Shown here: positions 2,691 through 64,000 of the stretch, in pieces
Layout of the letters: each line of letters begins with the position of its first letter
Position numbering within the stretch: position 1 is the stretch's first letter
NCBI RefSeq assembly: GCF_040183065.1
Contig: NC_091122.1
Span: forward strand, 156,429,955 to 156,493,954
Origin: Periplaneta americana
Lineage: Eukaryota > Arthropoda > Insecta > Blattodea > Blattidae
Length of the DNA: 64,000 nt
Reading direction: 5' to 3'
The notes under the pieces: model-generated
Database searches by the model: none
Told to the model about the DNA's origin: nothing
What the model saw: the letters and a program-made list of their open reading frames with translations, nothing else
Translations under genes and position numbers: made by a program

Positions 2691-4205
2691 TTACTTACAA
2701 ATGGCTTTTAAGGAACCCAAAGGTTCATTGCCGCCCTCACATAAGCCTGCCATCGGTCCCTATCCTGTGCAAGATTAATCCAGTCTCTATCATCACACCC
2801 CACCTCCCTCAAATCCTTTTTAATATTATCCTCCCATCTACGTCTCGGCCTCCCTAAAGGTCTTTTTCCCTCCAGTCTCCCAACTAACACTCTATATGCA
2901 TTTCTGGATTCGCCCATACGTGCTACATGCCCTGCCCATCTCAAACGTCTGGATTTTAAGTTCCTAATTATGTTAGGTGAAGAATACAATGCGTGCAGTT
3001 CTGTGTTGTGTAACTTTCTCCATTCTCCTGTAGCTTCATCCCGCTTAGCCCCAAATATTTTCCTAAGCACCTTATTCTCAAACACCCTTAACTTATGTTC
3101 CTCTCTCAGAGTGAGAGTCCAAATTTCACAACCACACAGAACAACCGGTAATATAACTGTTTTATAAATTCTAACTTTCAGATTTTTGGACAGCAGACTA
3201 GATGATAAGAGCTTCTCAACCGAATAATAACACGCATTTCCCATATTTATTCTGCGTTTAATTTCCTCCCGAGTGTCATTTATATTTGTTACTGTTGCTC
3301 CAAGGTATCTGAATTTTTCAACCTCTTCGAAGGATAAATCTCCAATTTTTATATTTCCATTTCGTACAATATCCTGGTCACGAGACATAATCATATACTT
3401 CGTCTTTTCGGGATTTACTTCCAAACCGATCGCTTTACTTGCTTCAAGTAAAATTTCCGTGTTTTCCCTAATCGTTTGTGTATTTTCTCCTAACATATTC
3501 ACGTCATCTGCATAGACAAGAAGCTGATGTAACCCGTTCAATTCCAAACCCTGCCTGTTATCCTGAACTTTCCTAATGGCATATTCTAGAGCGAAGTTAA
3601 AAAGTAAAGGTGATAGTACATCTCCCTGCTTTAGCCCGCAGTGAATTGGAAAAGCATCAGATAGAAACTGACCTATACGGACTCTGCTGTATGTTTCACT
3701 GAGACACATTTTAATTAATCAAACTAGTTTCTTGGAAATACCAAATTCAATAAGAATATCATATAATACTTCCCTCTTAACCGAGTCATATGCCTTTTTG
3801 AAATCTATGAATAACTGATGTATTGTAGCCTTATACTCCCATTTTTTCTCCATTATCTGTCGAATACAAAAAATCTGATCAATAGTCGATCTATTACGCC
3901 GAAAACCGCACTGATGATCCCCAATAATTTCATCTACGTACGGAGTTAATCTTCTCAAAAGAATATTGGACAAAATTTTGTACGACGTCAACAAAAGTGA
4001 TATTCCTCGAAAGTTACCACAGTTGGTTTTGTCCCCCTTTTTAAAAATAGGTACAATTATGGACTCCTTCCATTGTTCTGGTACAATTTCCTTTTCCCAA
4101 ATAGCAAGTACAAGTTTATAAATTTCGCTATATAATGCACTTCCACCCTCTTGTATTAATTCTGCTGGAATTTGATCGATACCTGGAGACTTGTACTTTT
4201 TCAGA
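2691..4205 (-). mobile_element. 5'-truncated RTE-like non-LTR retrotransposon
   Basis: A minus-strand LINE ending 3' in GTAAGTAA, the tail seen in the other copies of this family here (29231, 30346). It begins inside the reverse transcriptase, so the 5' endonuclease half was lost at insertion. A perfect 13-bp target-site duplication flanks it. Family identity rests on palm and C-terminal motifs (see the coding relic). The RTE-clade assignment is from general resemblance of the RRLRWAGHV and GRPRRRW C-terminus. Confidence 0.85.
2708..4204 (-). pseudogene. Reverse transcriptase of RTE-like LINE (one nonsense codon)
   Basis: Minus-strand reading runs open from 4204 with no start codon (LKKYKSPGIDQIPAELIQEG, the RT fingers), through GFRRNRSTIDQ and LFIDFKKAYDSV (the first palm motif, catalytic D), to a single in-frame TGA at about 3719. 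It then resumes without a shift as [20 protein letters not shown] and YADDVNMLG (catalytic YADD box), and ends with the C-terminal [10 protein letters not shown] and GRPRRRW motifs. The TGA stands where an arginine CGA codon would fit, suggesting CpG decay. Apart from that stop about 495 codons are open, so the insertion is fairly young. It cannot act because its 5' part is missing. Confidence 0.85.
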
Positions 4206-4245
4206 TAGTAGTTGATACAGCGTCGTTAAATAACCAACTAAAAAA

Positions 4246-13067: not shown

Positions 13068-16000
13068 ATGGATACTGAAGACAATGAGCAGCAGCAAATA
13101 AATCAAGCTAATGTGGTAAGTTTACAAGTAAGTTATATAAATGTACGAAAGTTCGTAAATTTCTTCATTTATAAAATATTCTTGAGTTTTCTTAATAGGT
13201 ATTTCATAGGTGTTAATATGAGGTATGAAAAATGTATCAGTATGTAACGTGAAGTTAAACTCTCCAATGTCATAACATTTGGGAATTAGGAAGATGGAGG
13301 TCCCATGTTTATAAATCTACACATAAGAGATAACCACTTTTCTTCAGAAAAAAAGAATTCATCCAATTATAATCCAGAGTCATTTTAAAAGCTTTAAAGA
13401 AATGTCAACCAACAGCATATCCTATCCTGGTTTTGAAGTATAGGTGTAGCCAAATGCTTAAAAAAAAAACTCGCATAAGAATATGAAACTGTAAAATTTG
13501 TGTGTAAAACTCTTTTTTTTTATTCAATGTTTTTTTTTTTCTAATGGCAGATATTTGACTTTTCGTTATTCACCCATATGAAGCCAGTTGTGTAGACCAA
13601 TTTATAGTCAGGCAACATTCAAAACATAGCACTTCTATTCTCGACTCACACATGACATCATTGTTCTACATGACTTAATCTCTACTCCAGTCTGACTGGT
13701 AGGAGAATTTGGTTTCTGCGCACTTTGAAATGTATGTTGCTGGGCTATACATATAGAGTCGTTCCTGAGGGTGTGCCATAAGATGGTGGTCTATGCTACA
13801 CCAGCTATGAGATGAGATGATGATAGAGATTTGTTGGGATGACACAGGGGAACCGGAGCTCCTGGAGAAAACCCATGTGACTTGAACCAGGGGCTTGCTC
13901 AACACAAGCTATAAATCGGAAGCACACCTGGGATCGAACCTGGGTCCACAGGATTATAAGTCCAGTGCTCTAGCCACTAGAACACCGTGATGGCATTCAG
14001 CTCAAATTTATTTACAGTGTTTATTTCGGAAGTCAGATTTGAATAAATTATTTTTAATCTTGTATTATAATTTGAGAGTTGGAAGGCAAATTTTCCTAAC
14101 TACAGTAAAACCCCGATAAGACGCTGTTCAAGGGACCGGGTGTAAACCGCGTATTAACTGGGACCACGTATTAGGCGGGTATACTAATTTTAACTTTTAT
14201 ACAGTATCTATTAGAATTTATCTTTATTGAAATACATGATCCATGAAAGGTAATATAGTATTACTCCATTATGTAATTACTGTACTGTACCGGTACGTCA
14301 AAGACATTTACAATATGTACTGTACTTAATTCTTTCGGAAAAAAAGTCATTTATAGTTGTTTGCCGTGTGCATGTTCTCCAAGTCCTCATGTTTACCACA
14401 CTTCAGTTTCCTGCGATTATATCCTCCCGACAACGTCACAACTGTAGTGATTGAGTCGCGATTTTTTATTATCATTCTTAATATCGATGATGGGATTCCT
14501 AATGAATCAGAGAGTTGTTTCTGAGTAAGAGTACTGTTCTCATCGTACTTTCGTAAGATATCCAATTTTTCCGACATAGAAAGCGCTTTTCATTTAACAC
14601 TCAATGTAATGACATTCACAGACACTTCAATACACTAAAGGACAACAAACTGCCCTGCAAAAATTTCCAGAATTTTATTACGGCCAAATGAGGAATGCTG
14701 TTTGAGAGAGAGGGTTAGCAAGAGGGTGAGGTATTGTCACTATATGTAGGCTTTAACCGCGCAGGTAAAGAGTCGATTAAGAGAGCGTGACAAGAGGGTG
14801 GGGTATAATAAGGTATGAAGTATGAAGGTTTAAATGTGCAGGTAAAGGGTCGAATACCAATACTTTTCAGGTTAATGGCACCAGTGAGTTCAGTGACCAA
14901 GATGTTTCATTGCTGTTGCAGTACATTGCTGAAAATTACATCGAAAATATTCCACAAAAACAGCGTATTATGCGGGACTTGAGCGCAACAAACGGGGTAT
15001 TTTATAAAGGCGTTATATATGAAATGTGCAGGGACCGGACAAAAAAAAGTGTATTCACGGGATAGCATAATAAGCGGGCGCGTCTTATCGAGGTTTTACT
15101 GTACCAAGAGAGAGAGAGACTTTATTTTTTACTTGCTTACAAATTGTTATTTTTCAGAGTGAAATCCGAAAAATGGTGAAAAATTTGGATCAGCATCATG
15201 GTTTGCAACTTGTTGATGCTGTACCCGTTCTTTTGAAATTATTCTGTACGGACAGTATGAACCTCAAGTCTCTTCATCTTAAGTCACTTATACAAGTTGG
15301 GTTCCATGTTCTGGAAGTAAGCTATATCAAGGACAATGAGAGCAATGAATTTTCAGCACGACTGCTTACCCTACTATTGAATTCATCAGAAAATGAAGAC
15401 AGAGAAGTGGAAAGGAGCAAGAAAATATATATTTTTGCAGCATGGTGCAACTCAGGTACGTCCACATCTCAACATGAATATCAAAATATCCTCAGTTTAC
15501 AATTGAAATTATATAAGATAACTAATGCGCAAAGCTTGCCAATAGTCATTAAATACATGCAGCATAATTTGATGATTCTTCAACAATACTTACTGGTCAT
15601 AATCCATTAACAAACACAGGGTCCTTCATATAATGATACTTCTATCGCACCCCGCCATTTCTACAGTAGTAACTTCAGCTTCTAAAATTTGTTTAGGAGT
15701 GAAAATGTTTATAAACAACAAAAATGAATACAGATGCATCTTACTTATGTCACAAGAGATATTCAAAGTGTCCTTCTTCTGTTTCAGTACATTTTTAACA
15801 TCTCTCAAAATTGAATAATTTTGAGGGAAAAATTGTTCCGGAGCCGGGTATCGAACCCGGGACCTTTGGTTTAACGTACCAACACTCTACCACTGAGCTA
15901 CTCGGGAACTCTAACCGTCACCGATCCAATTTTTCCCTCTATATCCACAGACCTCAAAGTGGGCCGACAACCGTCAAGCAACCAACTTCGAGTGCACACT

Positions 16001-19000
16001 AACTCCGTGTGACTTAAATTGTGGTTTTCTGTTAACGAACAGTGACAAAGTTCCCGAGTAGCTCAGTGGTAGAGCGTTGGTACGTTAAACCAAAGGTCCC
16101 GGGTTCGATACCCGGCTCCGGAACAATTTTTCCCTCAAAATTATTCAAATCAACTTTACAGGGAGTTATACCTTAAATCTTGATTTGCATCTCTCAAAAT
16201 TGTTCTGATATACTTATATATATATATTATTTTAATGTACTGAAGTACATATGATATTTCCATGCAGATATTCTGCGTCATCATACGATGAAAGAGTAAT
16301 AGAACGGAGAAAAATTCCCTCCGGCACCGGGATTTGAACCCGGGTTTTCAGCACGTAGAGCTGAAAACCCGGGTTCAAATCCGGCGCCGGAGGGAATTTT
16401 TCTCCGTTCCATTACTCTTTCATCACTCAAATACTTGGCTGATCTCTTCTTGCAGAATGTTCCTTTAACTTGTCAGATATTTTTTTCCACTTTTTCTATA
16501 ACTTATAACTGCAAAAACTTTCATATTTTGTTAGCTTCATTTTATTACAAGGTCGGTACTAGGCGATAGGTCTCTCTATAATAAAGATAGTATTGTTATA
16601 ATTCGAACATGCCGCATTACCAAACACAGGGATTATATGTTGTTGTTGTTTTCTAATGCCAGGTGTTTGACAGAGTCATTTGATCTCTTGCACTCCAATA
16701 TTTTTCAAAGATATTATGGTCGGCCACTGAAGCACAGATTTTGAGGTGTTCTGAATCCATTGAAAATGGCAAGTTGTAGCCAATTTAAGTAAACACCATA
16801 TTTTAACGTTTTGGTGGCTACTTCATTCACACACAACCCCCAGAATGTCTGGAGGACCACACCTGCTGTTGGTCGACGGGTCCATTGGACCTAGCTGGGA
16901 GATCTTGTTGATCACCAGCTTTCCCTCCTTAAGCCACAGAAGGACGATTTTAGTGCCATAGCAGGTCAACACTAGGAACAGAAAAGTAGAAAGAGGAGGA
17001 AGGAAAGTGAAATGAATGCTCTAATGCCGTTGGGGTCGAAGAAAGTAAGAGTTCAGTCAGAGGACTGGATAGGAAAGGGTAAAGAGGGAATTAGGTATTG
17101 AATAGAGGAAAATTATACCAAATTCAGTCATTAACTCATCATTATATTGAAGGAGGGGTAGGAAGAAGGAAGACTATACCTTATGTCGATGTAGATTTTG
17201 TTACTCTGACAGTTAAAAATTAGAGAAGGGAAAGCGATTATGGATAAAAAAGTACTCAAATCTAAATATGTCATTTTTTGAAAAAGCTCAAAGGTGTGGG
17301 TTTCAAACCCAGTAAACCTCCCCCCTTCCTTTGCATACGTACCTGCTTGAATTGCAGAGAAAATTTTATCATTCATAATAGCAGTACAAACACACGGCAA
17401 ACAAAAATAACAAATTTTTTTCATATGAAATTAGCTCCTAAGTATTTGCATTTTGTTCTGTAACTAGGCCTAATGCACAATATAATATGTTTCCTATGAA
17501 GTGGTGTCTGAATTGTTTTCCCCATTTCATAAATAATTTCCCATGTATAGCGCTGTCCTGCTTATAACACTTTAAGGTCACAGTCTCTTGACGAGCATAT
17601 TAATGGGGTTATACTGTATGCAGTCAATAAGAGCACATGAACACCTTGTTTCCATTAATGCACGACTAGTTTTATTATTTAATACCGTATTGGCATAGTG
17701 GGGATGTATAATATCAGAATCGAGTATTTTAAACTTCCCGCATCTTGCATAAACTTCTTATGTAATATATTATTTCAATGTACCGAAGTACATATGATAT
17801 TTCCATGCAGATATTCTGCATCATCATACGATGAAAGAGTAATGGAAATATCATATGTACTTCGGTACATTGAAATAATATATGATATGCGTAAATCACG
17901 AAGTGATTTAAGACGGCGCCTATTCCGTCGGATCCCGGCCAACTAGTCACTCATAACGAGTGCACCTCAGCACATGTGTGGACTTCGGTCCTATGTTCAG
18001 TTCCATTACTCTTTCATCATATGATGACGCAGAATATCTGCATGGAAATATCATATGTACTTCGGTACATTGAAATGATATATGATATGCGTAAATCACG
18101 AAGTGATTTAAGACGGCGCCTATTCCGTCGGATCCCGGCCAACTAGTCACTCATAACAAGTGCACCTCAGCACATGTGTGGACTTCGGTCCTATGTTCAT
18201 AGACATCTATGACGTAGTGCAGAGGGCGGCCACTAGAGGGAACCCAAGAGTTGGAACTCAATCAGAGACAATTCTGTCCGACGTCGGGGTTGTATCCAGT
18301 GTGGCTTAGTGGATAAAGCATCAGCACATAGAGCTGAAAACCCGAGTTCAAATCCCGGCGCCGGAGAGAATTTTTCTCCGTTCCATTACTCTTCTTATGT
18401 AAACTAGGCAACATCCGTTCACGTACAAGCCGTGCTCTTTCCAAGAAGGTTACAGGAATTTCACGCATGCGCGGGAGAAAATTGTCTCCCGCTGGCCGCT
18501 TATGACTCATCAAGAGCACAAAGCGTTAAGTGAACAGTGAATCTATCCTACAGATGTCAGGTGCATCGATGCTATCGTTCACGTGCTATATCTCAAGGAA
18601 GAAATTTAATAGTCTGTATTTTAGCCTGTAGGTGTCCGCATGTCACTGTCGGAACGTTTACTTTATGTGGATGTGTGTACAGTGCTGCTACGAGAGTGTA
18701 GTTTGTGAATTACTATACTTCAGTGTCAGCATAATAGCATAGTTTGGCTTTCAAATGTGTTGGCTGAATGTAGTGGTGGTATGAATTTAAGTATCTGTAT
18801 GGTAGTGTATAATATTTAAGAATAATATTTACTGGCATGTATTTATAGTAATCAATCTGTGAATAGGATTACTGTACAGTACTGGTATAGGCTATAGTGT
18901 ATCAGTGTGTTGTGAACCAAAATATACAATATTACTGAACATACGCTTTTGTAAATAATGGCATTGTGGTATGTATTAATACCTCTGAGGTGATAAAAGA

Positions 19001-19664
19001 GAGATTGAAAGAAGGGAATAGATGTTATTGGGCACTTCTCCAATTAATGAGATCTAGACACCTTTTGAAGGCAGGAAAAATAAAGATATACAGAACTGTG
19101 TTGAGACCAATTGTCACCTATGCATCGGAAACCTGGTCTATGCTTAAGGAAGACGAAAATAGAATTGCTATTTGGGAAAGAAAAATTTTAAGGAGAATAT
19201 ATGGACCAAAATTAGTAAACGGAGAATGGAGATTGCGATACAATAGCGAGTTGTACGAGTTGTATGGTAAACCTTCAATATTGGGGGAAATAAAAAGCTC
19301 AAGATTAAAATGGCTGGGCCATGTGGAAAGAAGAGAAGAGGACTCATTACTACACAGGATATATAGAGGAAATCCAGGAGGAAGAAGACGCACAGGGAGA
19401 CCTAGAAAGACATGGATGAAAGATGTGGAGGAGGATATGAAGGAGCTGGGGATCCGAACATGGAGGAGGCGTGCCCGGGACAGGAATGATTGGGCTTCAC
19501 TTTTTAGGCAGGCTTTAGTCCTACAAGGGCTGTAATGCCACAGATGATGGTATGTATTAATTTTTAGCAAATGTAAACAATGAACTCTGTTCAAGTAATT
19601 TAGAACAGTAAAGAACTGGGTAAACTGGCTTACCAGGAAAAATTGGAAATAAAAAGACTGGGTT

Positions 19665-22339: not shown

Positions 22340-23460
22340 CAGCTATTTATTTATTTTTTATTTATCTATTTATTTATTTATTATTTTGCTAATAATTGTA
22401 ACATAAAATATAATATATACAGAAAAACTTTAGCTCACCCCTGAAAGAGTGGAACTCGTGCTCAGGGGCGGATTCCTGAATTGAAATTAATAATTATACA
22501 ATACAATTTGTCTTATGTCTACTATGCAATTATAGTATATAAATTTAAATTCACAATTTTTTCAATTTTTATAAAATCCATACATAACTTTTTAAATTTA
22601 ATACTAGAACTATTAGAATTGACAAGATTAGGATATTTAAGTATAAATTTGTTATATATTCTTGGGCCTAAATTACTACTATGATTAAATACTATAACAG
22701 TGTTGCATTTTGGTTCAAACAATCTTAAAGAATTCTTATCTTTTGTTTCATAACTATGAGAATACAATTCAAAATTATTTCGATTTTTATGTATGAATTT
22801 TATTAATACAATATAAATGTTAAGTACATTAAAGTCTAGAAACAAATTTTGAGATGGAAAATCAATAGGTTTATGAAGACATATTTTAATTATTTTCTTC
22901 TGTAATAAATAAAGTGGATTAAAATTAGATTTAAATGAGCTACCCCATCCTATAATTCCATACATAATTACCGATTGAAATAAAGTTAAATATATTGTAC
23001 GTAATAAACTTATGGACAAGTAATTCCTCAATAAAACAAAATAATATACTATTTTACGTAATTTATTACAAAGGTAATTAATGTGTTGGTTCCATTTTAA
23101 ATGATTATCGAAAATTATGCCTAAATACTTAACTTCAGAGGATTCTTTAATAATCGGACATTTACACTGTATAAGACAGCAATCAGAATTATGTAATTCA
23201 ATATTTAATATAGATGTAGGAGGTTCGTTACATTTTTCAGATAATGAGAATGGAATAATTATGGTTTTATTTTCGTTGATAGAAAGATAATTTATGTCAA
23301 ACCATTTTTTTTTATTAATTTAAGTCCATTATTTGAATTATTATATGCATCATACCAGGTTTTTCCACCAAAAAGTAAAACTGTGTCATCTGCATAAGTA
23401 TAATGAACACCATTGTATTGTTGTAAGTCAATTTTTAATAAAACAGTATATACAGTGAAA
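22340..23460 (-). pseudogene. CR1/Daphne-type LINE: RT C-terminal half and 3' UTR
   Basis: The minus strand reads YADDTVLLFGGKTWYDA (palm box), then after a frameshift in an A-run near 23310 SEVKYLGIIFDNHLKWN. It continues through IMYGIIGWGSSFKSN to HSSNLGPRIYNKF, ending at 22522. A GGATTCCGCCCCTGAGCACG segment follows, with CAGGGGTGAGC about 20 bases further on, then a (TAAA)n tail reaching about 22340. Lack of a zinc knuckle and the GPRIYNKF-type ending fit CR1/Daphne-like LINEs. The 5' break near 23460 falls just before the palm. Confidence 0.75.
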
Positions 23461-23785: not shown

Positions 23786-24246
23786 ACATACTATATTGTG
23801 TGTTCTATCTTTCTATTAACATAGCAGAAAGATCCTCATTCAATTTGTCTCAGTTTCCTTATTCTGCACAGCTGCGACACATATACATCCATACATAAGC
23901 CTACATAATACACATTATAGAACATATAATTTTGTAATAATTGGTACGGTATATTATTAGGTTTTAGGAATGGAAAATTATATTAACATACATTACTGAT
24001 GCATTTAGATCACAGTATAAAAATAATGTGGAAAAATATGATAGCCAAATATAGCCAATTTAAATTACATTTATGAGTCATTTCTTAATTATTAAAGGAA
24101 ATGTTATCCATTTAAAAAAATACCTAATGTAAGTAATGGAGAACATGAAGACCCGAAACTTGAACTTAAATCATCTTATGCAAAACGCAAACGTGAGACT
24201 CTTCTGTCCCACGCTGAAGTTGATAAACAATGTTGATGAATAATTT

Positions 24247-24709
24247 CAAGGGAAAAATTGTTCCGGTGCCGGGTATCGATCCCGGGACCTCTGGTTGAAC
24301 GTACCAGCGCTCTACCACTGAGCTACCCGGGAACTCCACCCGACACCATCTCAACTTTTCCCTTTATATCCACACAACTCGCGTGGGCTGATGAAACGCC
24401 AGAAACCGACGAGTGCACACAATCTCTGTGTGACTTGTAATTATGGTTTTCTGTTAACGTACAAGTCACACAGAGATTGTGTGCACTCGTTGTGGGTCTC
24501 TGGCGTTTTGTCAGCCCACGCGAGTTGTGTGGATATAAAGGGAAAAGTTGAGACGGTGTCGGGTGGAGTTCCCGGGTAGCTCAGTGGTAAAGCGCTGGTA
24601 CGTTCAACCAGAGGTCCCGGGATCGATACCCGGCCCCGGAACAATTTTTCCCTTGAAATTATTCAAATCTGCTTTATAGGGAGCTTCACCTGAAAGACTA
24701 GATTTGCAT
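24247..24709. mobile_element. tRNA-like snap-back element (copy B)
   Basis: Long facing arms: 24249-24345 carries the tRNA-like module inverted and 24565-24653 carries it forward (D arm GCTCAGTGGTAAAGC, anticodon arm CTGGT/ACCAG with loop ACGTTCA, T arm CCGGG/CCCGG). The palindrome continues inward through the ACTCGCGTGGGCTGA and CACACAATCTCTGTGTGACTT segments, so most of the element folds on itself. The 3' tail to GATTTGCAT matches copy A. An 18-bp direct repeat AATGTTGATGAATAATTT flanks it (24229-24246, 24710-24727). Confidence 0.8.
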
Positions 24710-24746
24710 AATGTTGATGAATAATTTTTATTAATAATGTTAATAA

Positions 24747-28075: not shown

Positions 28076-28423
28076 AGGGTTGTCAAATGTCCTGGATTTC
28101 CCAGGATTGTTCTGGATTTTAATGGTGTGTCTTGTGTCCTGGATTCAGTTATATTTGTCCCGGAATGTTAAAAAGTTTGGAAAATACAATTCTTTGCTCA
28201 TTTCTGTAAAATTATTAAAAAAATTCCTTAGTCATTTTTTCAAGACCCTGTTCACCATATGTTCAATGAAGTCGTCAATGCTGCCTGGTGCCTCAGGTTG
28301 TATTGAAATAAAAACGATAATACTATAATATGTATTAGGTATTATACAGTATTTTTATTCTTTACTCTGTTTGGGAGTTGATTTATTATTGATAGAATTT
28401 AAACAATATATCAATACTTTTTT

Positions 28424-29221
28424 GACGTGAATATGTTAGGAGAAAATATACAAACGATTAGGGAAAACACGGAAATTTTACTTGAAGCAAGTAAAGCGAT
28501 CGGTTTGGAAGTAAATCCCGAAAAGACAAAGTATATGATTATGTCTCGTGACCAGAATATTGTACGAAATGAAAATATAAAAATTGGAGATTTATCCTTC
28601 GAAGAGATGGAAAAATTCAAATATCTTGGAGCAACAGTAACAAATATAAATGACACTCGGGAGAAAATTAAACGCAGAATAAATATGGGAAATGTGTGTT
28701 ATTATTCGGTTGAGAAGCTCTTATCATCCAGTCTGCTGTCCAAAAATCTGAAAGTTAGAATTTATAAAACAGTTATATTACCGGTTGTTCTGTATGGTTG
28801 TGAAACTTGGACTCTCACTCTGAGAGAGGAACATAGGTTAAGGGTGTTTGAGAATAAGGTGCTTAGGAAAATATTTGGGGCTAAGAGGGATGAAGTTACA
28901 GGAGAATGGAGAAAGTTACACAACACAGAACTGCATGGATTGTATTCTTCACCTAACATAATTAGGAACTTAAAATCCAGACGTTTGAGATGGGCAGGGC
29001 ATGTAGCACGTATGGGCGAATCCAGAAATGCATATAGAGTGTTAGTTGGGAGACCGGAGGGAAAAAGACCTTTAGGGATGCCGAGACGTAGATGGGAGGA
29101 TAATATTAAAATGGATTTGAGAGAGGTGGGGTATGATGATAGAGACTGGATTAATCTTGCACAGGATAGGGACCGATGGCGGGCTTATGTGAGGGCAGGA
29201 ATGAACCTTCGGGTTCCTTAA
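28424..29221 (+). CDS. Open RT C-terminal fragment of RTE-like LINE
   Basis: An uninterrupted frame of about 265 codons from [20 protein letters not shown] through [16 protein letters not shown] (RT motif after the palm), [40 protein letters not shown] and GRPEGKRPLGMPRRRW to AGMNLRVP and TAA. It is nearly identical in wording to the minus-strand copy at 2708-3709. It lacks the palm catalytic triad, fingers and endonuclease, and has no promoter of its own, so although open it is a dead 5'-truncated insertion and not a host gene. Confidence 0.85.
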   Translation, partial: DVNMLGENIQTIRENTEILLEASKAIGLEVNPEKTKYMIMSRDQNIVRNENIKIGDLSFEEMEKFKYLGATVTNINDTREKIKRRINMGNVCYYSVEKLLSSSLLSKNLKVRIYKTVILPVVLYGCETWTLTLREEHRLRVFENKVLRKIFGAKRDEVTGEWRKLHNTELHGLYSSPNIIRNLKSRRLRWAGHVARMGESRNAYRVLVGRPEGKRPLGMPRRRWEDNIKMDLREVGYDDRDWINLAQDRDRWRAYVRAGMNLRVP

Positions 29222-62135: not shown

Positions 62136-64000
62136 ATCATCATCATCATCATCATCATTGGCGCTACAGCCCTTGGTGGGCCTGGGCCTCCCTTAGTAAT
62201 TGTCGCCATCCGTCTCTATCTTGTGTAGCAGCCTTCCAATTCTTGCACCCCAACTTTCTGGCATCCTCTTCCACTCCATCAATCCATCGCAAGTGCGGTC
62301 GACCTCGTCTTCTCTGACCTCCCGGATTTGTTATTACAATTTTTTTGCAAGGTTCACTTGGGTCCATGCGTATTACATGTCCTGCCCACCTCAATCTGCT
62401 AGTTTTAACTGTATTGATTATATTTGGCTCTCCTAGAAGTCTATATAATTCATAGTTGCATCTCCTCCTCCAGAGACCTTCCTCAAATGTTGGGCCATAG
62501 ATCCTTCGCAGAATCTTTCTTTCGAAAATCTCCAATCTTTTTTCATCGTTTTTGGAGATTGACCACATTTCTGCCGTATATGTCAAAACTGGTCTCACTA
62601 ATGTTTTGTAAAGAATAACTTTTACTTTCCTGGATAGAGCATGCGAACTAAAGTGATATTTCAAGCCGAAATATGCTCTGTTTGCTTTCATTAATCGATT
62701 AGAGATTTCTTTGGACATGTTATTATCGCTAGTGACCACTGATCCTAAATATGTAAAGTTGTCAACTTTCTCAAAATTATAATCTAATATCTGCAGGCTG
62801 TCTATTTTGTCAACTATCTTTCCATTATCTGCCAACATATATTTTGTTTTCCTCTCGTTGATGATGAGGCCTATTTCTTTTCCAGCCTGTTCCAAGGAAA
62901 GGAACACTTCCTTTACATATTTCATGGATCTGCCAATAATGACAATGTCATCTGCAAATGCCAATATTTGTGTGGATTTATAAAAAATGTTGCTCCGTGT
63001 TTGCACTTCAGACTTCCTGACGACACTTTCCAATGCAATATTGAATAGGAGGCATGCTAATGCATCTCCTTGACGAACTCCATTGTGTATTTGGAATGGT
63101 TTGGATGTTAAGTTCTGTATTTTAACTTGATTGTATGTGTTACTCATTAGCAATTTAACCATTCTAATTAATTTAGTTGGGATATTCAATTCTTCCATTG
63201 CCACGTAGAGCCTTTCCCTGTTAATACTATCATAGGCACACTTAAAATCGATAAAAAGCAGATGAATTGGGATACAAAATTCCTTCATTTTTTCTAAAAT
63301 TTGTCGTAAAATAAAAATCTGGTTAATTGTAGATTTTCCGGTGCGAAACCCTGTTTGATAGTCCCCCAATAAGTTCTCTACGTAAGGACGAAGCCTGTAG
63401 TATAGGATATTAGACAACGTTTTGTACACTGTGTTTAACAAAGTAATGCCTCTAAAATTTGCACATACTAATTGATCTCCACTTTTATGTAGTGGGCATA
63501 TAATTCCTATGAGCCAGTCTTTTGGGATTATTTCAGTATTCCATACTAAGTTGAAAATGTGCTCCAGATATTGATTTAGTCCTCTTCCACCATTCTTTAA
63601 CAATTCAGCTGCTAGATTATCTGATCCACATGCTTTATTATTGTTAAGTTTGTTTAATGCTGTCTCAATTTCTTCCATTGTTATTGGTTCTATTTCATCA
63701 TTTACTACATTCAAAGCAGATTGGTTTGTTACTGTGGTTGTGCTTGCTTGACCGACACTGCCCCTGTTTAATAAACAGTCAAAATGTCTTACCCAGCGCT
63801 CAAGAATATCATTGTTGTTACTAATGAGAGATCCATCCTCATGCCTGCATAAGGTTAATCTTGGTTTGAACTGTTTCCTAGCCATGTTAATGCCTTTGTA
63901 GAAATTTCTGGTCTCGTAAAAGTTCTAATTTCTCTAATTCAGCATTCATCCATTCTTTCTTTTTCCTCTTATGAATTGTCTTTTCTACTCTCCTTTTATT
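62136..64000 (-). mobile_element. RTE-like LINE (GAT-tail family), runs off right edge
   Basis: The 3' end is a (GAT)n tail at 62136-62159. Coding is nearly intact up to the edge (see ORF). Same family as 18981-19547. It adjoins the + strand LINE relic tail to tail. Confidence 0.85.
62164..63885 (-). CDS. LINE reverse transcriptase, 573 open codons
   Basis: Reads MARKQFKPRLTLCRHEDGSL, IEPITMEEIETALNKLNNNK and GIICPLHKSGD (fingers), LLFIDFKCAYDSINRERLYV (catalytic D), GVRQGDALACLLFNIALES, ILAFADDIVIIGR (catalytic DD), [43 protein letters not shown] and GRPHLRWIDGV, ending EAQAHQGL. All RT palm motifs are present, so the domain could fold. The chosen ATG is internal: the frame also covers NFYETRNFYKGIN upstream, and a one-base shift near 63930 connects it to KKKEWMNAELEKLE. 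The endonuclease half lies beyond the window. Retrotransposon gene, not a host gene. Confidence 0.85.
   Translation of the reverse strand: MARKQFKPRLTLCRHEDGSLISNNNDILERWVRHFDCLLNRGSVGQASTTTVTNQSALNVVNDEIEPITMEEIETALNKLNNNKACGSDNLAAELLKNGGRGLNQYLEHIFNLVWNTEIIPKDWLIGIICPLHKSGDQLVCANFRGITLLNTVYKTLSNILYYRLRPYVENLLGDYQTGFRTGKSTINQIFILRQILEKMKEFCIPIHLLFIDFKCAYDSINRERLYVAMEELNIPTKLIRMVKLLMSNTYNQVKIQNLTSKPFQIHNGVRQGDALACLLFNIALESVVRKSEVQTRSNIFYKSTQILAFADDIVIIGRSMKYVKEVFLSLEQAGKEIGLIINERKTKYMLADNGKIVDKIDSLQILDYNFEKVDNFTYLGSVVTSDNNMSKEISNRLMKANRAYFGLKYHFSSHALSRKVKVILYKTLVRPVLTYTAEMWSISKNDEKRLEIFERKILRRIYGPTFEEGLWRRRCNYELYRLLGEPNIINTVKTSRLRWAGHVIRMDPSEPCKKIVITNPGGQRRRGRPHLRWIDGVEEDARKLGCKNWKAATQDRDGWRQLLREAQAHQGL

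What the first reader, a model, noticed from the sequence alone, without database searches (positions are those of the whole stretch)
15799..16202. Palindromic element with a tRNA-like module in each arm and LINE-type target duplication (copy A)
Two 98-bp arms, each a complete tRNA-like cloverleaf, face each other, followed by a unique 3' tail; the whole unit has a perfect 15-bp direct repeat at its borders. Ordinary tRNA SINEs have one 5' tRNA head and no palindrome; MITEs have palindromes but short fixed duplications. This combines both. The anticodon loop carries C instead of T at position 33, so it is unlikely to be a working tRNA gene.
Basis: partly seen in the sequence, partly recalled or inferred. 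Interest (0 to 1): 0.8.

Follow-up and report, generated by a model that had tools for sequence, protein, structure and literature searches.

The report
tRNA-bearing element using Penelope-type insertion
The palindrome is one insertion of a very abundant 285-base, tRNA-carrying parasitic repeat that appears to be copied into the genome by Penelope-type enzymes rather than by the LINE machinery that normally moves tRNA-derived repeats.

Summary
In detail: two ~98-bp arms, each with a tRNA cloverleaf with C33, a 3' tail, and a perfect 15-bp target duplication. The palindrome is not the element itself. The element is a 285-bp unit, found in tandem (up to 7.25 units per insertion), that inserts head-to-head with varying junctions. 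Its outer ends are fixed: one at unit ~98 ("tail-less"), the other at ~140 ("tailed"), flanking a ~42-nt hairpin tail. All 21 resolved two-ended insertions (of 28 examined, similarity-picked) pair one of each. In a chromosome stretch taken without choosing loci, 23 of 31 do (p=0.005). This is the anatomy of Penelope-like elements (PLEs), whose enzyme starts reverse transcription at two internal RNA sites (PMC11167929). PLEs in this genome show it too: 18 of 18 with both ends located, duplications 11-16 bp in 16. Copy A is best explained as a tRNA-bearing, non-autonomous, PLE-mobilised, retrozyme-like repeat. No hammerhead was found, and a T5 run follows the tRNA, so it is not an ordinary SINE head. 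The tail has 13,094 genomic matches. The autonomous partner was not found; one PLE subfamily has a suggestively similar tail.

The parts
15799..15813 (.). left target-site duplication CATCTCTCAAAATTG (its last 3 nt, TTG, are also compatible with unit nt 98-100)
15811..16046 (-). first cDNA segment, unit read from ~100 back through 1/285 to 150; outer end is the tail-less type
15836..15907 (-). tRNA module (anticodon GTT, C33)
15828..15832 (-). T5 run directly downstream of the tRNA module (pol III terminator-like)
16049..16190 (+). second cDNA segment, unit 1 to 142; outer end is the tailed type (last 3 nt shared with the target duplication); 2 nt of filler 16047-16048 at the head-to-head junction
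16052..16123 (+). tRNA module (anticodon GTT, C33) with sequences resembling pol III A and B boxes
   Evidence: box motifs recalled
16127..16131 (+). T5 run directly downstream of the tRNA module (unit 79-83)
16146..16190 (+). tail between the two inferred reverse-transcription start sites (unit 98 to ~139-142); hairpin
16188..16202 (.). right target-site duplication
24229..24246 (.). copy B left target duplication (18 nt maximal match, partly shared with the unit end)
24237..24463 (-). copy B minus segment, tail-less outer end (unit 99)
24463..24712 (+). copy B plus segment, tailed outer end (unit 145); segments 82-84% identical to the unit
24710..24727 (.). copy B right target duplication

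Best explanation
A non-autonomous, tRNA-bearing retroelement of 285 nt that uses Penelope-like element (PLE) machinery. An RNA carrying the unit once or several times (a read-through transcript of an array, or a circle) is bound by a PLE reverse transcriptase/GIY-YIG endonuclease. The enzyme cuts both target strands ~13 bp apart. cDNA synthesis starts on one strand at unit ~98 and on the other at unit ~140, the two sites flanking the hairpin tail. The two antisense cDNAs are joined at their inner ends. The result is a head-to-head inverted insertion with one tail-less and one tailed end and a ~13-bp duplication. Shown here: unit, tandem copies, inversion, fixed paired ends, duplications, and the same anatomy in PLE loci of this genome. 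Inferred: the enzyme, the RNA form, the order of events, joining at microhomology, and the role of the tRNA module.
For: 285-nt unit in tandem and/or head-to-head at the 27 distinct places of L001-L028 plus copy B. Outer ends fixed and mixed in 21 of 21 resolved two-ended insertions out of these 28; two of the 21 (L002, L027) have a tail-less end of only 7-8 nt. C1 stretch without choice of loci: 65 clusters, 31 two-ended, 23 mixed, p=0.005 against independent ends. Duplications in 18 of the 21: ten of 13 nt, 15 of 12-14 nt (L002, L016, L024 left out as unclear). PLE loci fetched around GIY-YIG matches: in 18 of 35 distinct loci both ends were located, all 18 mixed, 16 with a duplication of 11-16 nt. 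Frames of five of these 18 were scanned and all five have RVT_1, four also GIY-YIG. Published PLE biochemistry: both strands cut, two adjacent internal RT start sites, the tail being the stretch between them (PMC11167929). pLTRs move an unrelated gene in trans (PMC3846280 passages). The tail aligns with the tail of PLE L055: 6 of 1000 shuffles and 8 of 14212 random k-mers score as high.
Against: No PLE with the same tail was found. Tail resemblance to L055 (and more weakly to P2: 12 of 1000, 57 of 14212) is modest, out of 15 comparisons; copy B resembles L055 (4 of 1000) but not P2 (304 of 1000), and the second tRNA family resembles none clearly. PLE tails tested are not significant hairpins, whereas this element's is. 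8 of 31 unselected clusters are not mixed; one of these is a demonstrable misclassification, the rest are not explained. No transcript or enzyme data. Partner LINEs were not searched for.
Confidence: 0.83

Rival explanations
1. tRNA-derived SINE mobilised by a LINE, the inversion being ordinary twin priming.
For: tRNA module with pol III box-like sequences, variable duplications mostly of 12-15 bp, head-to-head inversion; LINE-like reading frames occur in the window (judged by eye).
Against: The second end is at a fixed unit position, insertions hold up to 7.25 tandem units, and T5 after the tRNA should end a pol III transcript before the tail. PLE loci of this genome have the same paired ends; LINEs were not examined for this.
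Confidence: 0.09
2. Animal retrozyme proper: hammerhead-bearing tandem repeat whose circular RNA is the template.
For: Unit size, tandem copies and suspected PLE partner match the published description of non-LTR retrozymes (PMC7761336 passages). Copy B has CTGATGA and GAAA 7 nt apart on the antisense strand (24388-24405).
Against: No hammerhead by Rfam at E up to 10 in four unit-bearing loci or in copy B, nor at E up to 1 in seven PLE loci. No CTGA[TCA][GA]A or CGAAA on either strand of the consensus unit. The copy B letters leave no room for stem II. Minimal PLE-type hammerheads could still escape Rfam models.
Confidence: 0.05
3. Foldback/MITE-like DNA element moving as a palindrome.
For: Inverted arms and flanking duplication.
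Against: Arm lengths and junctions differ between copies, the two ends are not each other's inverted repeat (one has a ~42-nt extension), duplication length varies, and tandem multimers occur.
Confidence: 0.02
4. Tandem arrays are assembly or recombination products and only the short copies are genuine insertions.
For: Arrays can grow by unequal exchange; in L018 the two units differ more from each other (11) than from other loci (9.0), and L012 and L013 are nearly as diverse within as between.
Against: Multi-unit copies have the same fixed paired ends and target duplications as short ones (e.g. L004, L010). Over all pairs, units within a locus differ less (mean 3.5) than between loci (7.7; 40 units).
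Confidence: 0.05

Closest known systems
Penelope-like elements (PAc of Anolis, Pen2a of Adineta vaga)
   Same: Tandem or partial-tandem copies, inverted partial copy, ~30-40 nt tail at one end, short target duplications, two internal RT start sites (PMC11167929, parts 1-2 of 4 read; PMC3846280, passages).
   Different: No reading frame seen; a tRNA module instead; much shorter unit; tail is a strong hairpin.
Metazoan non-LTR retrozymes
   Same: Non-coding, ~150-300 bp tandem units, PLEs suspected as the autonomous partner (PMC7761336 passages).
   Different: No hammerhead found here; carries a tRNA module; end structure ties it to PLE-type integration.
tRNA-derived SINEs
   Same: Short, non-coding, tRNA-related module with pol III box-like sequences (general knowledge for the class).
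   Different: tRNA is not at a 5' head, a T5 run follows it, ends and multimers are PLE-like.

Membership tests
Penelope-like element (non-autonomous member) | tandem/partial-tandem and inverted copies in one insertion | tested here: met
Penelope-like element (non-autonomous member) | 30-40 nt tail present at one of two outward ends | tested here: met
   21 of 21 resolved, of 28 examined; 23 of 31 unselected
Penelope-like element (non-autonomous member) | short target duplications like those of PLEs in the same genome | tested here: met
   12-14 nt in 15 of 18 versus 12-13 nt in 13 of 16 PLE loci, range 11-16
Penelope-like element (non-autonomous member) | shared sequence with an autonomous PLE of the genome | tested here: inconclusive
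   tail resembles L055 tail; no PLE with an identical tail found
Penelope-like element (non-autonomous member) | hammerhead motif (frequent in PLEs) | tested here: inconclusive
   none found, but none was found in seven PLE loci either, and minimal forms may be missed
Retrozyme (animal, non-LTR) | type I hammerhead ribozyme in each unit | tested here: not met
   limited to what Rfam models detect
Retrozyme (animal, non-LTR) | circular RNA intermediate | not testable with these tools
   no transcript data
tRNA-derived SINE | 5' tRNA head driving a pol III transcript that includes the 3' end | tested here: not met
   T5 at unit 79-83 lies between tRNA and both ends; read-through not excluded
tRNA-derived SINE | 3' end shared with a partner LINE | not tested
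   no search for a LINE with this 3' end was made

The most novel reading that the evidence does not exclude
A class of PLE-mobilised 'tRNA-zymes': retrozyme-like tandem repeats in which a tRNA module, sitting just upstream of the tail, has taken the place of the hammerhead. It would recruit host tRNA-processing enzymes (or fold the template) so that the two start sites on the tail hairpin are presented one to each target strand by a dimeric PLE enzyme. At least one more family in this genome (L053:285-1650) has the same plan.
Probability: 0.2. Interest if true: 0.82.

Novelty: new variant of a known kind. Interest (0 to 1): 0.62.

Why it matters
Which autonomous element moves small tandem non-coding repeats in animals is open: PMC7761336 (passages) says metazoan retrozyme repeats show no motif that would tell. 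Here a family with over 13,000 tail matches carries the integration anatomy of PLEs. The end-pairing rule (one start site per target strand) also gives a directly testable statement about PLE integration: the 2024 in vitro work found two start sites but no difference between strands.

Tried and rejected
Hammerhead search: Rfam scans found none; a genome search with RF00008 says nothing, as its control rang nowhere. Partner PLE by the tail with a non-family upstream context: 165 sites, only part of them listed. Of the listed ones, the repeated contexts match, by eye, the reverse strand of the unit, i.e. inversion junctions with short microhomology; none could be read in full. BLAST of the unit against 40 PLE loci: strong hits are inserted copies of this or related tRNA families; weak ones include tRNA-like stretches (E down to 5e-5) and a 23-nt match within L055 (E 7.5). 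Idea that the tail hairpin is a general PLE feature: rejected, PLE tails not significant. Covariation on five sequences: most pairs kept in four with a few compensatory changes, F2 badly aligned, too few sequences to claim more. Literature: ten searches; judged by titles and abstract starts, none of the listed papers described a tRNA-bearing PLE-mobilised element. Subscription papers and preprints are mostly not in that library.

Rows dropped and bias: L001-L028 were chosen by similarity to copy A, so 21 of 21 is not a random sample; some searches were made to check it. Many PLE loci were chosen because GIY-YIG matches lie head-to-head, which selects for inversion but not for end type. L019 (same place as L007) was dropped. 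In one search L035-L037, L046 and L047 were dropped as lying inside larger loci, and L033 by oversight; one search put L033 back (one end only). L058 and L068 (PLE part) could not be resolved.

Full report
What was checked. The palindrome, the two tRNA cloverleaves and the 15-bp perfect target duplication are all as described. C33 is present. The window lies in a 3.23-Gb genome of 91 contigs; the large contigs seen are about 138-229 Mb. This and the insect-like LINE frames suggest a cockroach, possibly the American cockroach; that name is recall, not a result.

The element is a tandem unit. The whole-genome search returned 193 matches from 40 scored of 1246 candidates, a lower bound. Several are arrays with a 285-nt period. 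A consensus was taken from six units of L009 (0-3 differences each), and every locus was decomposed into unit coordinates. Copy A is unit ~100 back to 1 and 285 back to 150 on the minus strand, then unit 1 to 142 on the plus strand. Other insertions have other junctions and up to 2066 nt of tandem unit (L009). The tail has 13,094 genomic matches at up to 3 mismatches, and none for the reversed control. The exact 19-nt body end has 18,978, of which 9,439 run on into the first 8 nt of the tail. The exact 19-nt tail end has 7,267, of which 4,137 run on into the next unit.

The ends obey a rule. There are 28 distinct insertions (27 from L001-L028, L001 being copy A and L019 the same place as L007, plus copy B). 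In 21 both outward ends are resolved, and all 21 pair one end at unit ~98-100 with one at ~140-142. The tail begins at unit 98. In L002 and L027 the tail-less end rests on 7-8 nt. L005 fits but has no clean duplication. L009, L014 and L022 are one-ended. L008, L012 and L020 are cut by the fetched stretch. A further copy in L058 is also mixed, with only a 7-nt duplication; one in L049 was not resolved. These loci were not a random sample, so the rule was tested without choosing loci. Exact positions of body ends and tails on C1 from 1.27 to 15.3 Mb form 65 clusters (gap under 2.5 kb): 34 one-ended and 31 two-ended. Of the 31, 23 are mixed, 5 have no tail at either end and 3 have a tail at both (p=0.005 against independent ends). 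One of the 3 is not a true end, because the tail runs on into the next unit. Mutated tails would inflate the no-tail class; this was not checked by reading.

Target duplications. For 18 of the 21 insertions the maximal exact duplications are 9 to 18 nt, ten of them 13 nt and 15 of them 12-14 nt. The two nucleotides before the cuts are TG in 15 of 36 strand ends against 6.2% in the flanks. Part of this is overlap with CA in the unit at both start sites, so duplication length is slightly overestimated in those.

Penelope-like elements in the same genome. The GIY-YIG search listed 150 matches from 150 scored of 7669 candidates. Six frames were scanned: all six have RVT_1 and five also GIY-YIG. 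Of 35 distinct PLE loci fetched, both outward ends were located in 18: L051, L057, L060-L063, L065, L066 (family P1), L031, L042, L044, L049, L053, L054, L056 (P2), L055, L059, L067. All 18 pair a tail-less with a tailed end. The other 17 showed one end or none with the queries used. A duplication was found in 16 of the 18 (12 nt in nine, 13 nt in four, and 11, 15 and 16 nt once each) and not in L051 and L065. The published PAc enzyme cuts both strands and starts cDNA at two adjacent internal sites whose interval is the tail (PMC11167929, parts 1-2 of 4 read). [quoted passage not shown] The correspondence is close enough to call the insertion mechanism PLE-type.

What is particular here. The unit carries a tRNA module whose A and B boxes look intact (motifs recalled), followed directly by T5 at unit 79-83. 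A pol III transcript from that promoter should stop before the tail, so the mobilised RNA is either a read-through or made otherwise. The tails of the family, of copy B and of a second tRNA family fold better than shuffles (p 0.002, 0.004, 0.006), and in the main family the two start sites face each other on the stem. The five PLE tails tested do not (p 0.12-0.70). No hammerhead was found.

Partner. The family's tail aligns best with the tail of PLE L055 (6 of 1000 shuffles and 8 of 14212 random k-mers score as high), then with P2 (12 and 57). Copy B gives 4 and 36 with L055, 304 and 2568 with P2, and 23 and 318 with P1. The second tRNA family matches none clearly (best 54 of 1000). These are 15 comparisons, so the result is suggestive only. 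A search for the tail outside its usual context gave 165 sites; the repeated contexts among those listed look like inversion junctions.

A second family with the same plan. L053:285-1650 carries two tRNA modules, one tail-less and one tailed end, and a 13-nt duplication TAAATAACAACAT (end types judged by eye). The kind therefore recurs in this genome.

RNA form. Among 40 near-complete units, those within a locus differ by a mean of 3.5 nt and those between loci by 7.7 nt, with some non-consensus letters shared throughout an array. This fits one source per insertion, circular or multimeric. L012 and L013 are weak and L018 contrary cases, and exchange after insertion could contribute.

Verdict. 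Real, mobile, abundant. Insertion mechanism Penelope-type with good confidence. Classification as a non-autonomous PLE relative is likely but lacks the matching autonomous partner. New variant of a known kind.

Noticed in passing
16285-16424: A 140-bp near-perfect palindrome built from two facing tRNA 3' halves (ARAGORN calls tRNA-Val across it; below the Rfam gathering score). Dispersed full-length copies match on both strands (80 matches from 40 scored of 1742 candidates). Its mode of spread is not worked out.
   Followed up: partly
L053:285-1650: Second tRNA-bearing family with tail-less and tailed ends and a 13-nt target duplication, C33 in the anticodon loop too (by eye).
   Followed up: partly
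24388-24405: Copy B carries CTGATGA followed by GAAA on the strand antisense to the unit, hammerhead-like letters without room for stem II; Rfam finds no hammerhead there. Taken as chance.
   Followed up: partly
L032:2264-2817: 277-nt exact tandem duplication ending in the start of another tRNA-like repeat, in a locus fetched for a GIY-YIG match.
   Followed up: no
window 2708-4225, 18939-19535, 22522-23319, 28403-29221, 62164-63924: Several LINE-like reverse transcriptase reading frames or fragments, judged by eye from the translations only.
   Followed up: no
13918-13992 and 18295-18366: Further ARAGORN tRNA predictions (Ile, Tyr); only the second passes the Rfam tRNA threshold. Possibly tRNA-derived repeats.
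   Followed up: no
target sites of 18 insertions: Both strands prefer TG before the cut (15 of 36, background 6.2%), complementary to CA at both RNA start sites, i.e. possible primer-template pairing, unlike the published PAc in vitro result (PMC11167929).
   Followed up: partly
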